In this document: positions 1-7,202 of the stretch, in pieces
How positions within the stretch are numbered: the first letter of the stretch is position 1
Layout of the letters: the number at the start of each line of letters is the position of its first letter
Source: an uncultured Collinsella sp.
GTDB lineage: Bacteria; Actinomycetota; Coriobacteriia; Coriobacteriales; Coriobacteriaceae
Assembly: GCA_900551205.1 (NCBI GenBank)
Contig: URUW01000087.1
Location: 1-7,266, forward strand
Reading direction: 5' to 3'
DNA: 7,266 nt
Program-made: the position numbers and the translations under genes
The notes under the pieces: generated by a model
Database searches by the model: none
The model's input: only the letters and a program-made list of their open reading frames with translations
Told to the model about the DNA's origin: nothing

Positions 1-234
1 CGGTGGTAGATTTCGGAACGTGTCCGTCAGCCCCGTTCCGAAAAGCGAGCCGCATGCAACGGCCAAGCCACGACAGGCCCCGGGAGAGCGGGGACACCGG
101 CTTAGGTTTATCGCGAGTTCCGCACGAACAGGAGGCCACTTAATGTGGCCTCCGTCGTGAGCAGGACTGTAGAGCAGGAAAGTTCATATGCGGCCGTTGG
201 CGCCCGGGCAGCGCCGGGGATCGCACCTTTGCGG
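1..234. ncRNA. structured non-coding region, candidate RNA gene (strand and family unknown)
   Basis: No convincing coding frame lies between the tsaD stop codon and the window edge, yet the stretch is dense in inverted repeats. These are a 10-bp hairpin at 11-20/34-43; CCAAGCC 63-69 with GGCTTAGG 99-106 (one bulge) enclosing CCCCG 78-82/CGGGG 89-93; a long hairpin at 116-168; and GGCGC 199-203/GCGCC 211-215. Two long-range pairings, 49-55 with 188-194 and 57-64 with 192-199, would hold the ends together. Unpaired segments are purine-rich on the plus strand (40-49, 83-88, 172-182), which mildly favours plus-strand transcription, convergent with tsaD. I see no promoter or U-run terminator. I could not match it to tmRNA, RNase P RNA, SRP RNA or a familiar riboswitch. 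It could instead be the long trailer of the tsaD transcript. Confidence 0.35.
116..168. repeat. long inverted repeat / hairpin downstream of tsaD
   Basis: A 9-bp perfect stem (GGAGGCCAC 131-139 with GTGGCCTCC 145-153, five-base loop) continues, after a small internal loop, through CACGA 123-127/TCGTG 155-159. It extends further to AGTTCC 116-121/GGACT 164-168 with one bulge. It could act as a transcription barrier or 3'-end stabiliser for the operon message, but no T run follows on either strand, so it is not a standard intrinsic terminator. It may instead be one arm of a larger structured RNA. Confidence 0.7.
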
Positions 235-2619
235 CTACAGCGTCATGTTCGGATCGGCATCGACGTCGAACGGCGAGATTTCTCCTCGGTCGAATTTACG
301 GCGAGCAACCTCTGCGATCATGGCGGCGTTGTCGGTGCACGCCGAAAGCGGTGGCACCGTTACGCGGATCCCCTGACGCCCGAGCTTCTTGATCATCATC
401 TCGCGCAGATGCGGATTAGCCGAGACACCACCGCCGATGCAATACTCCTTGCACCCGGTGGCGTGCAGGGCGTTTTTGGCCTTCTTGTACTGCACGTCAA
501 AGACCGCCGCCTCAAACGAGGCCGCTAGGTCGGGCAGGTGAATCGTGCGCCCGGCCTTGGTCTCCTGCTCGATGTAGAGCGTCACCGCCGTCTTGAGGCC
601 CGAAAGCGAGAAGCGATAGTCCCCCCTGCTGTTAAGCGCGCGAGGAAAATCGATCGCGCGGGGATTGCCCGTCTCGGCCAGCTTGGAGATGATGGGGCCA
701 CCGGGATAGCCCAGGCCCAGCGCCTTGGCCACCTTGTCGAAGGCCTCGCCCACGGCATCGTCGAGCGTCTCGCCGAGCACCTCGTAGTCTCCCCACGCCT
801 TGACGTGAACAAGCATGGTATGACCGCCCGAGACGAGCGTGAAGATAAACGGCGGCTTGAGATCGGGCTGCGCCAGCAAGTTGGCAAACAGGTGCCCCTC
901 CAGATGGTTGACGCATACGAGCGGCTTACCGGCAGCGTAGGCAAAGCCTTTGGCAAAGGCAACGCCCACCACGAGGGCGCCCACCAGGCCCGGACCCTGT
1001 GTCACGCCTACGGCGGCAAGCTCGCTGGGAGCAATGGCTCCACCCTCAAGACCAAGCGATGCTGCGGCATCCTCGAGTGCCGCGTCCACGACGCTCACGA
1101 TAACCTCAACGTGCTTGCGCGAAGCGATCTCGGGCACTACGCCGCCAAAACGGGCATGAAAATCGATCTGCGTCGAAACCTGATTGGCCAGCATATTACC
1201 GTCCGCGTCGATAATCGCCACAGCCGTCTCATCGCACGAACTCTCGATGGCAAGCACCAGGCGACGGCGCTCAATTTCGGCGCGCTCCTCAACGGTGCGC
1301 TCGGGTGCAAGTAGCGGCCATACACGCTGCTCAGCTGCCGTCGGCTCGGGCGAAGCATTGTCGACCGGAAGCACCAGGGGCAGCGGAGCCGTCATGACGA
1401 TGGCATCCTTGCCGGCACCATAGTAGCCGCGGCGCCGTCCTGCCTCGGTAAAGCCCAGAGCGTTATAAAGCGCGATCGCTCCCTCGTTGCCGTCCTCGAC
1501 CTCGAGCGAAGCCGTGGTGCAGCCGAGCATCTGGGCATCATAGCTCACATGCGACAGCAGCTTGCGGGCAATGCCCTCACGGCGATGTGCCGGGTCGACG
1601 GCGACATCCAGAATCTGCACATCACCGTCCACGACCATACCGCCGGCAAGGCCCAGCAGCTTGCCGTCGTCGTGTGCCACCCACCAACTACGCGGCGCAG
1701 CGACGTCCTCGCCCAGTTCGGACAGGAACATGCCCGGCGTCCACGCCTCGTGTCCGGCACCTTCAAAGCAGGCAACCTCCAGCGCGCTCGCGCCCTCGGC
1801 ATCCGCCGCGCCCATGGGACGGAACTGCAGATGACGACCGGCGAGCTCATCGGCAACGCCCGTAATTTCGCTCTGTGCACTCTCGGCAAGACCAAGACGC
1901 TTGCGCTCGTTTTCCTCGGCATCCGAAAGGCGCGTGTAAATCGGCAGGACGCGGGCCGGATCGCCGTCACCCGCAGCGTGCGCGAGCAGCAAGCCCTCGC
2001 CCGAAGGCCACCACAGGTCGCGCTCCACGCAGCGGGCGGTCTCGTCCTCACCCAGCAGCTTGCCATAGCGCACGAGACCGTCACCGGTCAGCTGAACCTG
2101 GTCCCAGTCCGCTGCTCGGCGCCACTCATCGAGCGCCACGGCGGCCTTGACCACGTGTTCGCGCTCAAATTGACGCTCGGGGCCCTCATCGACCAGCATA
2201 TACAGCGCCGGATATACCTCACCGCGCATAGCATCGGCCAAGATACCAAGCTTGCCGCGCACGCCAGCCTTCCACGCCGTCCAAGCGCAAGCGTCGAGCG
2301 TCGACACGCCCAGCAGCGGAACATTGGCACCACGCGCGAGGCCCTTGGCAGTGGAGATGCCGATGCGCACACCCGTAAAGGACCCCGGGCCGCGGCCGAC
2401 CACATAGCAGCCAACATCGCTGCGATCCAGACCGGCTTGAGCCAGCACGCCATCAACGGTATTCACGAGCTCAACGTTGGCGTGACGGCGACACATGTGG
2501 TCGCCACTCACGAGCTTCGTCTCGCCCGTCTGCCCATCAATCCAGCTTGCCGCGCAGGCAAGCATGTCGGTCGAAGTATCGAGCGCCACCACCAGCGCGT
2601 TGTCGTTATGCAAGCTCAT
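235..2619 (-). CDS. TsaB-RimI-TsaD triple-domain fusion protein (tRNA t6A37 synthesis plus ribosomal-protein N-acetyltransferase)
   Basis: One uninterrupted 794-residue reading frame joins three proteins that are normally separate. Residues about 8-240 are TsaB (ALDTS at 12-16, GRGPGSFTGVRIG at 75-87). Residues about 264-410 are a RimI-type GNAT acetyltransferase (acetyl-CoA loop RREGIA at 346-351, ALYNALGF at 383-390, YY at 399-400). Residues about 454-794 are full-length TsaD (SSCDET at 460-465, metal ligands H572 and H576 in HLEGH, SGGHT at 597-601, GGGVSAN at 729-735, D763 in CTDN). TsaD transfers threonylcarbamoyl from its AMP ester to A37 of tRNA, TsaB is its dimerisation partner, and RimI acetylates the N-terminal Ala of S18; all act in the cytosol. 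I chose the ATG at 2619 because AAGG lies 9 bases upstream; the frame could extend to a TTG at 2637. The start overlaps the end of tsaE by 14 bases. All key residues seen are intact, so the domains look functional. The domain calls are firm; the activity of the fused enzyme is inferred. Confidence 0.95.
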   Translation of the reverse strand: MSLHNDNALVVALDTSTDMLACAASWIDGQTGETKLVSGDHMCRRHANVELVNTVDGVLAQAGLDRSDVGCYVVGRGPGSFTGVRIGISTAKGLARGANVPLLGVSTLDACAWTAWKAGVRGKLGILADAMRGEVYPALYMLVDEGPERQFEREHVVKAAVALDEWRRAADWDQVQLTGDGLVRYGKLLGEDETARCVERDLWWPSGEGLLLAHAAGDGDPARVLPIYTRLSDAEENERKRLGLAESAQSEITGVADELAGRHLQFRPMGAADAEGASALEVACFEGAGHEAWTPGMFLSELGEDVAAPRSWWVAHDDGKLLGLAGGMVVDGDVQILDVAVDPAHRREGIARKLLSHVSYDAQMLGCTTASLEVEDGNEGAIALYNALGFTEAGRRRGYYGAGKDAIVMTAPLPLVLPVDNASPEPTAAEQRVWPLLAPERTVEERAEIERRRLVLAIESSCDETAVAIIDADGNMLANQVSTQIDFHARFGGVVPEIASRKHVEVIVSVVDAALEDAAASLGLEGGAIAPSELAAVGVTQGPGLVGALVVGVAFAKGFAYAAGKPLVCVNHLEGHLFANLLAQPDLKPPFIFTLVSGGHTMLVHVKAWGDYEVLGETLDDAVGEAFDKVAKALGLGYPGGPIISKLAETGNPRAIDFPRALNSRGDYRFSLSGLKTAVTLYIEQETKAGRTIHLPDLAASFEAAVFDVQYKKAKNALHATGCKEYCIGGGVSANPHLREMMIKKLGRQGIRVTVPPLSACTDNAAMIAEVARRKFDRGEISPFDVDADPNMTL

Positions 2620-3112
2620 CTTGTACAGCCTTATCAATCAAATGGGAAAGCTCCATTGCGCGGTCACCGTGCGCCTCGAGCGTTATCGTTCGCACATCAC
2701 TGTCGTCCTCGTCACGCTTGAGCGTCACCGAAAGATACTCATCCGTCAGCTCGTCCTGGAACTGTTCGCCCCACTCCAGCAGACAGGCACCCTCATAGCC
2801 CAGTACATCGAAAATGCCCGTATCCTCGAGCTCGTAAGCATGTTCCAGACGGTACAGGTCAAAGTGGAACAGCGGAATACGCCCTTGATCGTGAACGGCC
2901 ATGAGCGCAAACGTAGGACTCGTAACCATATGCCCATCGCCCAGCCCGCGCGAGACGCCCTTGGTAAAGTGAGTTTTGCCCACTCCCAGGCCACCGGTCA
3001 GGATGAGCACATCGCCGTCCTCAAGGCACGGTGCAATTAGCTCGCCAAAGTACTCCGTATCGGCAGCACAAGTCGTTTTGTAAGTACCTACCCCCAGGCG
3101 CTCCAGGGACAT
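2606..3112 (-). CDS. tsaE: tRNA threonylcarbamoyladenosine biosynthesis ATPase TsaE
   Basis: This 168-residue protein is the small P-loop ATPase that works with TsaB and TsaD in t6A37 synthesis, where ATP turnover resets the complex after each cycle. The Walker A motif GGLGVGKT is at 40-47, followed by TSPTF at 64-68, the family signature HFDLYR at 83-88 and EWGE at 113-116. Length is close to the usual 150-160 residues, with a slightly longer acidic C-terminal part (RDEDDSDV near 133-140). The ATG at 3112 has a strong AAGGAG ribosome site at 3118-3123, five bases upstream. It sits 12 bases after the glycosylase gene, and its last codons overlap the start of the TsaB-RimI-TsaD gene. Its direct partners are therefore encoded next and probably translated in a coupled way. 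Confidence 0.95.
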   Translation of the reverse strand: MSLERLGVGTYKTTCAADTEYFGELIAPCLEDGDVLILTGGLGVGKTHFTKGVSRGLGDGHMVTSPTFALMAVHDQGRIPLFHFDLYRLEHAYELEDTGIFDVLGYEGACLLEWGEQFQDELTDEYLSVTLKRDEDDSDVRTITLEAHGDRAMELSHLIDKAVQDELA

Positions 3113-3753: not shown

Positions 3754-4899
3754 CTACACGTAGACCTTGTCGAGACGCATACCAAAGCCGCAAGCGACCT
3801 CGTAGTTAATCGTGCCGCGTAGGCGCGCCATCTCGTCCATGGTAATCTCGGCATCTCCATCGCAGCCGACAATGATCATCTCGTCACCATACTCGGCCTC
3901 GGGAATCTCATGCGCCGGGTTGGACTGAATGGCGACCATAAACTGATCCATGCAGATATTGCCAACCTGATGCACGCGCTCGCCGCGATACAGCACATCC
4001 ATACGATTGGAAAGCGTACGCGATAGGCCGTCGGCATAACCGATCGGCAGCGTGCAGATCTGAACGCGCGTACGCGGTACGCGGTAGGTAAAACCGTAGC
4101 CCACGCCCTCGCCCATCGCAGGGTGTGCCACGCGCGTCACGCGCGCATGGACGCTCATAACGGGATCAAGCTGCATCACGCGACCACTCAGCTCACATGG
4201 CTGCAGACCATACAAACCGATGCCGGCACGAATCATGTCAAAGTGCATTGAAGAATCGAGCATCGAGGACGGCGTGTTGGCGCAGTGCACGATACCGCAC
4301 TCAAAGCCCGCATCCTTAATGGCCTGAACGGCCTCAGTAAAGCGCTGACACTGCAGTTTGTAGTCCCAGCCCGAAGGTTCATCGGCCGTGGCGAAGTGCG
4401 TAAATACGCCGTCGCACTGAATACCGCGATGGAAATTAATACCGCGGACAAAGTCGAGCACCTGCGTGTAATGTACGCCAATGCGGTTCATGCCCGTCTC
4501 GATGGCGAGATGATACTTGCCCACCTTGCCCGCCGCGACGGCACATTCGCCATACGCAAGAGCAAAGTCAGACGTATAGACCGAGGGCATGATATCAAAC
4601 TCGAGCAACGTCGGAATAGCCTCGATAGGCGGCTCGCTTAGGATGAGGACGGGTTTCGTAATCCCGCCCTGTCGGAGCTCAACGCCCTCGTTAACCGTCG
4701 CCACGGCAAACATGTCGGCACCGGCCGAATACATGATCTTGGCGCACTCAACAGCTCCATGACCATAAGCATCGGCCTTGACCACGCAGCACAGGCGCTG
4801 ACGCGGATTCAACAAGTTCTTATAGGCCCTCGTGTTGCGACGGAGCGCCCCGCGGTCGATCTCGACCCAGGACCAGCGCGTCAAATCGGCTTTATTCAT
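3754..4899 (-). CDS. alr: alanine racemase
   Basis: This 381-residue PLP enzyme interconverts L- and D-alanine, supplying D-Ala for peptidoglycan. The PLP lysine is K41 in VVKADAYGHG (39-48), and the second catalytic base is Y268 in GYGFTYR (267-273). TGMNRIG at 135-141 (R139), THFATADE at 167-174, VHCANTPSS at 204-212, IGYADG at 286-291 and GNICMDQ at 313-319 are all family landmarks. Length matches the usual 370-390. It starts two bases after the nnr stop, with only a weak ribosome site (GGATGA inside the end of nnr), so it probably depends on ribosomes finishing nnr. One oddity is A132: in the Geobacillus stearothermophilus enzyme the aligned position (HLK before MDTGM) is the carbamylated Lys129. 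The identification is firm; the effect of the substitution is inferred. Confidence 0.96.
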   Translation of the reverse strand: MNKADLTRWSWVEIDRGALRRNTRAYKNLLNPRQRLCCVVKADAYGHGAVECAKIMYSAGADMFAVATVNEGVELRQGGITKPVLILSEPPIEAIPTLLEFDIMPSVYTSDFALAYGECAVAAGKVGKYHLAIETGMNRIGVHYTQVLDFVRGINFHRGIQCDGVFTHFATADEPSGWDYKLQCQRFTEAVQAIKDAGFECGIVHCANTPSSMLDSSMHFDMIRAGIGLYGLQPCELSGRVMQLDPVMSVHARVTRVAHPAMGEGVGYGFTYRVPRTRVQICTLPIGYADGLSRTLSNRMDVLYRGERVHQVGNICMDQFMVAIQSNPAHEIPEAEYGDEMIIVGCDGDAEITMDEMARLRGTINYEVACGFGMRLDKVYV

Positions 4900-7167: not shown

Positions 7168-7202
7168 AAAAAAGGGGGAGGCCGCGAGGCCTCCCCCTTT
7201 TT
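7168..7202. terminator. bidirectional intrinsic terminator
   Basis: A perfect 10-bp stem (GGGGGAGGCC at 7174-7183 with GGCCTCCCCC at 7188-7197) encloses a four-base GCGA loop. Six A residues flank one side (7168-7173) and five T residues the other (7198-7202), so the RNA of either strand has a GC hairpin followed by a U run. For the minus strand it would end an upstream transcript just before the acpS promoters. Confidence 0.9.

What the first reader, a model, noticed from the sequence alone, without database searches (positions are those of the whole stretch)
235..2619. TsaB, RimI and TsaD fused into one 794-residue protein
Three enzymes usually encoded by adjacent genes form one uninterrupted frame, in the order of the classical tsaB-rimI-tsaD cluster, with all catalytic motifs kept. 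Fusion would force 1:1 TsaB:TsaD stoichiometry and put an S18-type acetyltransferase inside the t6A complex, tying tRNA modification to ribosomal-protein acetylation. How widely this exact triple fusion is described I cannot tell from here; two-part fusions of neighbouring members may already be annotated.
Basis: partly seen in the sequence, partly recalled or inferred. Interest (0 to 1): 0.72.

Follow-up and report, generated by a model that had tools for sequence, protein, structure and literature searches.

The report
Single-chain tRNA t6A enzyme with acetyltransferase
A Collinsella gut bacterium encodes TsaB, a RimI-type acetyltransferase and the tRNA-modifying enzyme TsaD as one long protein; this triple fusion was already reported in a related species, but in several lineages of relatives the acetyltransferase is missing or the helper ATPase TsaE is part of the same chain, so the joined tRNA enzyme is likely what selection keeps.

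Summary
Minus strand 2619-235 is one 794-codon frame: TsaB (about residues 1-240), a RimI-type GNAT (265-415), TsaD (453-794). Twenty named Collinsella loci match it over its whole length at 96-99% identity. The acetyltransferase scores below the curated RimI cut-off, but keeps the catalytic Glu and Tyr and is under purifying selection.

The architecture is known: a 2013 paper reports the yeaZ::rimI::ygjD triple fusion in Coriobacterium glomerans.

New here is the pattern across class Coriobacteriia. Of 259 genomes whose tsaD locus I read, 170 are TsaB-RimI-TsaD, 13 TsaE-TsaB-RimI-TsaD, 52 TsaB | RimI-TsaD; 8 have TsaB and TsaD in one frame without RimI, 3 a decayed RimI, 13 other or unreadable. 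Seven further four-part frames came from the order (20 in all); a single origin of the TsaE joining is rejected.

It most likely works as a single-chain TsaB-TsaD t6A transferase. RimI looks like a useful but dispensable passenger, so coupling of t6A to ribosomal-protein acetylation is not supported as the reason for the fusion. Against this: in the 52 split genomes it is TsaB, not RimI, that is unjoined. No expression or activity data exist here.

The parts
235..2619 (-). TsaB-RimI-TsaD fusion gene, 794 codons plus stop
   Evidence: single open frame; three families by HMM; full-length matches in 20 named Collinsella loci
1900..2619 (-). TsaB domain, residues about 1-240
   Evidence: TIGR03725 166.2 bits over cut-off 69.3; E. 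coli and Salmonella YeaZ chains match
1906..1944 (-). TsaB C-terminal tail motif PxYTRxSDAEExE (residues 226-238) leading into the linker
   Evidence: invariant positions in 77 selected aligned fusions; looser pattern present in 182 of 183 frames with RimI, 7 of 8 without, 2 of 2 decayed
1375..1827 (-). RimI-type GNAT domain, residues about 265-415, catalytic E373 and Y385 kept
   Evidence: TIGR01575 78.1 bits, below cut-off 86.4; alignment to solved RimI; pN/pS 0.06 among close loci
1264..1374 (-). linker between RimI and TsaD, residues 416-452, low predicted confidence in part
   Evidence: pLDDT below 50 at 420-424 and 426-429
238..1263 (-). TsaD domain, residues 453-794
   Evidence: TIGR03723 419.8 bits over cut-off 296.1; 43% identical to E. 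coli YgjD (4wq5) in fold search
2606..3112 (-). tsaE, separate gene overlapping the fusion start by 14 nt (joined to the chain in some relatives)
   Evidence: TIGR00150 109.7 bits over cut-off 60.1; overlap from coordinates

Best explanation
The minus strand of this window encodes TsaB, a RimI-type acetyltransferase and TsaD in one 794-codon frame, which is predicted to fold into a single-chain TsaB-TsaD unit that, with the separately encoded TsaE and TsaC, would make the t6A mark on ANN-decoding tRNAs. Shown: the frame, the three families, the kept catalytic residues, purifying selection on all three domains, and tsaE immediately upstream. Predicted: AlphaFold2 gives one confident 794-residue model, pTM 0.80. 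Inferred: the TsaB half pairs with the TsaD half as in the E. coli and Thermotoga heterodimers, so the pair is always made 1:1; the conserved TsaB tail now serves as the connector; TsaE docks on that pair. Inferred: the RimI domain is an active N-acetyltransferase in Collinsella, but a passenger of the t6A unit rather than part of its mechanism, because several lineages of relatives lack it and still have TsaB and TsaD in one frame.
For: HMM matches; conserved catalytic residues; pN/pS; model pLDDT 87.8, pTM 0.80, and a four-part relative pLDDT 86.4, pTM 0.77. In G001, a C. aerofaciens genome, the fusion query finds one place only, and a PF01300 (TsaC/Sua5) match lies in a 252-aa frame elsewhere. 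RimI-less TsaB-TsaD frames in 8 genomes and a decayed RimI in 3; at least 4 and 2 label changes on the tree. TsaE is in the same frame in 20 genomes, single origin rejected, p-AU 7.9e-6. TsaD-TsaB pairing, and the role of the TsaB tail in tRNA/TsaE binding, are from PMC11648230 (passages).
Against: In 52 genomes TsaB is a separate gene while RimI and TsaD stay joined, and in one more (G071) RimI is a stub and TsaB still separate; there the RimI-TsaD join is the constant one, which speaks against TsaB-TsaD joining as the general reason. No coordinates of the model could be inspected, so the TsaB:TsaD interface is untested; pTM only says that the domains are placed with confidence. No expression, mass-spectrometry or activity data. 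Low-confidence linkers leave room for cutting or internal starts. RimI is kept with intact catalytic residues in most fusions read and has a lower pN/pS than TsaB (0.27 against 0.38), more than a dead passenger would show. RimI of M. tuberculosis was reported to interact with TsaD in vivo (PMC4926160, passages), which favours a link.
Confidence: 0.75

Rival explanations
1. The fusion exists to couple tRNA t6A formation to Nalpha-acetylation of ribosomal protein S18, so that the two marks are made together.
For: RimI sits between TsaB and TsaD in 183 of 259 genomes read (170 three-part, 13 four-part) and is joined to TsaD in 52 more; catalytic residues kept; S18 of G001 (C. aerofaciens) starts MANDFS, an N-terminal Ala after Met removal; RimI-TsaD interaction in M. 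tuberculosis.
Against: RimI absent or decayed in 11 of 259, at least 4 + 2 label changes on the tree; in G261 and G377 no RimI match elsewhere at E 1e-8, in G204, G346, G314 and G302 only weak GNATs of 36.5-52.8 bits against a cut-off of 86.4 (the other five genomes were not searched). S18 residue 2 is Ser or Pro in 4 of 13 intact-RimI fusions and Ala in 4 of 5 RimI-less or decayed ones.
Confidence: 0.15
2. The frame is translated or cut into separate subunits in the cell, and the fusion is only a gene-level arrangement.
For: Low-confidence linkers; tsaB is separate from rimI-tsaD in 52 relatives.
Against: The 24-residue TsaB-RimI linker is also conserved (pN/pS 0.03 among close loci); joining of TsaE with in-frame linkers of 19-75 aa by domain boundaries would be pointless if the pieces were always separated. 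No protein data either way.
Confidence: 0.09
3. The long frame is a sequencing or assembly artefact.
For: None found. Three odd loci elsewhere were artefacts (runs of N in L051, L328, L330).
Against: Full-length matches in 20 named Collinsella loci, the same architecture in 170 class genomes and very many database members.
Confidence: 0.01

Closest known systems
yeaZ::rimI::ygjD triple fusion of Coriobacterium glomerans (PMC3571937, section 13 read)
   Same: same three domains in the same order, within the Coriobacteriia
   Different: reported as a synteny observation only; no survey of the class, no RimI losses and no TsaE-containing chain of this kind in the section read
TsaB-RimI two-part fusions of Mycobacterium leprae, Bordetella and Neisseria species (PMC4926160 and PMC5335608, passages)
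   Same: TsaB joined to RimI
   Different: not described there as joined to TsaD
alr-tsaE-tsaB-rimI-tsaD operon of M. tuberculosis (PMC5335608, passages)
   Same: same gene order, alr nearby, 4-bp overlaps between genes
   Different: separate proteins; the window joins three of them
TsaD-TsaB-TsaE complexes (E. coli 4wq5/4ydu, T. maritima 6nak/6s84, A. aeolicus 8iey)
   Same: both t6A halves of the fusion match chains of these complexes
   Different: those are separate chains; the helical-bundle contact is from PMC10792529 (passages)
Other joined t6A enzymes: Kae1-Bud32 fusion MJ1130 (2vwb, 3en9) and TsaN TsaD-TsaC-SUA5-TcdA (8ide)
   Same: t6A components covalently joined
   Different: other partners; by their titles no TsaB, RimI or TsaE

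Membership tests
TsaD (TIGR03723) | curated score cut-off 296.1 bits | tested here: met
   419.8 bits
TsaD (TIGR03723) | HxxxH metal motif and N-terminal SCDET (roles recalled) | tested here: met
   HLEGH 572-576 and SCDET 461-465 in the window; H572, H576, C462, D463, E464 invariant in 77 selected fusions
TsaB (TIGR03725) | curated score cut-off 69.3 bits | tested here: met
   166.2 bits
TsaB (TIGR03725) | forms the TsaD-TsaB dimer through the helical bundle | not testable with these tools
   model coordinates not available; pTM 0.80 is compatible
RimI (TIGR01575 equivalog) | curated score cut-off 86.4 bits | tested here: not met
   78.1 bits in the window, 83.0 and 80.1 in G001 and G002; the same domain passes in C. 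intestinalis, C. provencensis and Enorma massiliensis (88.4, 92.5, 94.9). I therefore call it RimI-type
RimI (TIGR01575 equivalog) | catalytic Glu and Tyr | tested here: met
   E373 and Y385 aligned to solved RimI, invariant in 77 selected fusions
RimI (TIGR01575 equivalog) | acetylates the N-terminal Ala of ribosomal protein S18 | not testable with these tools
   only that S18 of G001 (C. aerofaciens) begins MANDFS
yeaZ::rimI::ygjD triple fusion (PMC3571937) | TsaB, RimI and TsaD in this order in one frame | tested here: met
TsaE-TsaB-RimI-TsaD four-part chain | TsaE in the same frame | tested here: not met
   window tsaE ends in a stop 14 nt inside the fusion start, other frame

The most novel reading that the evidence does not exclude
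Coriobacteriia have converged several times on a one-chain t6A transferase. Starting from TsaB-RimI-TsaD (the window), lineages joined the ATPase TsaE to the front (TsaE-TsaB-RimI-TsaD, 20 genomes, single origin rejected), and others threw the acetyltransferase out (TsaB-TsaD, and TsaE-TsaB-TsaD in G261). G261 would be a complete, single-polypeptide equivalent of the bacterial TsaB-TsaD-TsaE complex, with the TsaB tail turned into the hinge that lets TsaE and tRNA take turns on TsaD.
Probability: 0.55. Interest if true: 0.6.

Novelty: already known. Interest (0 to 1): 0.36.

Why it matters
The window's fusion is a known architecture, so its own news value is small. The class-wide pattern is useful: nature has run the experiments that separate the partners. 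RimI-less and RimI-decayed chains argue that the acetyltransferase is not needed for t6A, and the four-part and TsaE-TsaB-TsaD chains offer ready single-chain constructs for the open question of how TsaE resets TsaB-TsaD between tRNAs. They also warn annotators that one frame here can hold up to four functions.

Tried and rejected
RimI loss in Collinsella bouchesdurhonensis (L051): rejected, a 39-base run of N stands in its place. Apparent splits of TsaB from the rest in G371 (L328) and G364 (L330): rejected, runs of N of 101 and 951. The last two form a class of their own in the tally and were left out of the 94-row tree; L051 was never in either.

Co-variation of S18's N-terminus with RimI: no relation seen (start codons picked by eye; one of 30 loci, G302, gave no readable S18). 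The six split-form genomes read all begin Met-Ser.

Polarity (RimI-TsaD first or triple fusion first): unresolved. Holding the separate-TsaB rows together is not rejected (p-AU 0.23), and the deepest splits inside the class have SH-aLRT of only 81-84. FastTree and the quick IQ-TREE place some rows differently; both use TsaD alone. Label changes cannot tell gain from loss. L172 (G302) and L288 (G171) are long branches whose place is unsure; the TsaE-origin test includes L288. G453 is not in the tree.

Triple fusion elsewhere in the phylum: 159 Actinomycetota genomes searched with the RimI family; 142 had a match at E 1e-20. Twelve of these are handles that the class search had drawn too; 11 of the 12 have frames over 800 aa. 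Longest frame among the other 130: 682 aa. The 17 without a match, and bacteria outside Actinomycetota, were not tested.

What the 259-genome tally leaves out: it includes 10 loci cut by a contig end and 2 with N runs as separate classes. 137 of the 396 class genomes had no locus read: mainly genomes with full-length matches that I did not fetch, others with broken or no TsaD, and 6 left out for the handle limit. Four-part chains: TsaD frames of 940 codons or more listed were compared with TsaE frames, and 80 of the 82 handles new were searched; the row list itself was truncated and chains cut by contig ends would be missed, so 20 of 395 order genomes is a lower figure. G454 (frame broken inside TsaD) and G456 (contig end) are not counted. 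RimI elsewhere in the genome was not searched in G055, G043, G037, G373 and G378. In G378 the contig starts inside RimI, so its TsaB was not seen. The 4-nt overlap count picks the start codon nearest the tsaB stop, which favours short overlaps. PF01300 matched in 28 of 28 genomes, but in G055 and G387 only in a frame over 800 aa (HypF-like, recalled), so TsaC is not shown there. No GNAT chain is among the 50 fold-search rows listed. The second look at solved structures (pdb_via) was not run.

Full report
What is there. The window is from Collinsella aerofaciens or a very close relative: 20 named Collinsella loci match the protein over residues 1-794 at 96-99% identity. On the minus strand, ATG 2619 to stop 235, lies one frame of 794 codons. 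It holds TsaB (TIGR03725, 166.2 bits, cut-off 69.3), a GNAT domain whose best family is RimI (TIGR01575, 78.1 bits, cut-off 86.4 not reached) and TsaD (TIGR03723, 419.8 bits, cut-off 296.1). Directly upstream, tsaE ends 14 nt inside the fusion start in another frame; before it come a family-4 uracil-DNA glycosylase, alr, the NAD(P)H-hydrate repair gene and acpS, all on the same strand. No promoter-like match lies between tsaE and the fusion (consensus scan only).

Is each domain alive? In 77 aligned triple fusions, TsaD's SCDE and HLEGH and RimI's E373 and Y385 are invariant. These rows were chosen from 102 candidates without the two decayed ones among them, so the unselected check counts more: 227 of 241 RimI domains read fit a catalytic pattern (Cys allowed for Tyr), 12 of the other 14 keep Glu and Tyr by eye, and 2 do not. 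The two residues align with the catalytic Glu and Tyr of solved RimI proteins (the E103/Y115 numbering is recalled). Against nine of the close Collinsella loci pN/pS is 0.092 (TsaB), 0.061 (RimI), 0.020 (TsaD); against 19 loci of Collinsella and close relatives 0.38, 0.27, 0.16. So in Collinsella the acetyltransferase is kept by selection, more strictly than TsaB.

Structure. AlphaFold2 on the 77-row alignment gives pLDDT 87.8 and pTM 0.80 for the whole chain; stretches with pLDDT below 50 are 1-4, 249-256, 258-262, 420-424 and 426-429. Foldseek lists TsaD chains of the E. coli and Thermotoga complexes first and TsaB chains further down; no GNAT chain is among the 50 rows shown. A pTM of 0.80 for a three-domain chain suggests that the domains are placed with confidence relative to each other; I could not look at the interface, so that the two halves pair as in the heterodimer is inference.

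How common is it? A class-wide search from G001 covered 396 genomes, 391 with a match. I read the tsaD locus of 259 of them and sorted these by profile HMMs built here: 170 TsaB-RimI-TsaD; 13 TsaE-TsaB-RimI-TsaD; 52 TsaB | RimI-TsaD; 7 TsaB-TsaD; 1 TsaE-TsaB-TsaD; 3 with a decayed RimI; 1 TsaB | TsaD with a RimI stub (G071); 10 cut by a contig end; 2 with N runs. In the split form, tsaB and rimI-tsaD overlap by 4 nt in 35 of 37 measured cases (nearest start codon taken), so a small insertion or deletion there could join or separate them. Split-form handles that I looked up (G019, G093, G105, G069) are not in the list of the window's order. In 159 genomes of the phylum, 142 with a RimI match, frames over 800 aa occur only in 11 handles of this class.

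RimI can go. Eight genomes have TsaB and TsaD in one frame with no RimI between them (G204, G261, G346, G314, G302, G055, G043, G037, and down to 12 bits). Three have a RimI remnant that has lost the acetyl-CoA loop (G377) or the catalytic Glu and Tyr (G373, G378). On a 94-row TsaD tree the seven TsaB-TsaD rows need 5 changes, at least 4 forced by well-supported branches, and the decayed rows 2 (quick search, SH-aLRT only); G261 sits apart as TsaE-TsaB-TsaD beside a chain with RimI. On a 275-row FastTree the eight rows need 6, at least 5 forced. For six of these genomes I looked for a RimI elsewhere: none at E 1e-8 in G261 and G377, only weak GNATs of 36.5-52.8 bits in the other four. In three small genomes (G055, G043, G037) most of the C-terminal part of TsaB is missing too, yet the tail motif PxYTRxSxAEE or a close variant remains before TsaD. 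The tail pattern is found in 182 of 183 frames with RimI, 7 of 8 without and 2 of 2 decayed. In A. aeolicus the TsaB tail was reported to govern tRNA and TsaE binding (PMC11648230, passages), a plausible reason for its conservation.

TsaE can join. A search of the order (395 genomes, 383 with TsaE) showed TsaE matches inside frames of more than 1,000 codons. Sequences confirm TsaE-TsaB-RimI-TsaD in 20 genomes (17; G329, G384 and G453), 13 of them in the class tally. TsaE-TsaB linkers are 19-75 aa by domain boundaries in the 17 measured (in L288 part of this is TsaB's own start). G261 has TsaE-TsaB-TsaD without RimI. Holding the 20 TsaE-fused rows of the tree together costs 249 log-likelihood units, p-AU 7.9e-6: several origins, with the caution that one row (L288) is a long branch. 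A four-part chain models with pLDDT 86.4 and pTM 0.77. A TsaC/Sua5-type (PF01300) match lies outside the fusion in 28 of 28 genomes searched, in two of them only in a HypF-sized frame.

S18. If RimI's work on S18 explained the fusion, S18's N-terminus might follow it. It does not: among 13 fusions with intact RimI the second residue is Ala in 9, Ser in 3, Pro in 1; among five RimI-less or decayed ones Ala in 4, Pro in 1; in six split-form genomes Ser.

What speaks against. In the 52 split genomes RimI and TsaD are joined and TsaB is free, so there the RimI-TsaD join is the constant one. RimI is intact in most chains read. Which fusion came first is open.

What is known. The SyntTax paper (PMC3571937; section 13 read whole) states that a triple fusion of YeaZ, RimI and YgjD is particularly noticeable in Coriobacterium glomerans and calls it a yeaZ::rimI::ygjD fusion; two-part TsaB-RimI fusions are noted in PMC4926160 and PMC5335608 (passages). 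One public source names a 79% identical protein as TsaD joined to a further t6A protein (P0080; the name is cut in the listing). So the window's architecture is known. I found no description of the TsaE-containing chain or of the RimI losses in ten full-text searches of the open library. One search (TsaE, TsaB, TsaD, fused) listed 15 papers, of which I looked at passages of three; papers outside that library are not covered.

Verdict. The best reading is a single-chain TsaB-TsaD t6A transferase carrying a RimI-type acetyltransferase that is useful in Collinsella but dispensable over the class. What is shown is sequence, selection and distribution; the physical pairing, the activity and the existence of the full-length product are inferred.

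Noticed in passing
L171, L260, L265-L268, L276, L311, L314, L327: In ten loci of the class tally the RimI domain of the fusion gives two matches in one frame, split by an in-frame insert near profile position 50.
   Followed up: no
L293, L335, L336: TsaD of three fusions is split into two matches near profile position 125-130, as if by an in-frame insert.
   Followed up: no
L376, L377, L378 (G055, G043, G037): Genomes of 0.9-1.5 Mb have lost most of TsaB's C-terminal part and RimI but keep the TsaB tail motif and a separate tsaE.
   Followed up: partly
L205 (G031) and L181 (G261): S18 would start Met-Pro, an unusual N-terminus for a RimI substrate; G031 has RimI in its fusion, G261 has none.
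   Followed up: no
window 7169-7202: 15-pair hairpin whose outer pairs are an A run and a T run, a likely bidirectional terminator upstream of the acpS-to-fusion gene row.
   Followed up: no
window 131-153: Inverted repeat GGAGGCCAC/GTGGCCTCC just downstream of the fusion's stop, without a T run (read).
   Followed up: no
window 3754-3793: The listed TTG start of the uracil-DNA glycosylase frame overlaps the end of alr by 40 nt; the true start is probably internal.
   Followed up: no
L102 / L379 (G071): In a split-tsaB genome the part before TsaD holds only some 30-45 residues, which look by eye like a RimI stub.
   Followed up: partly
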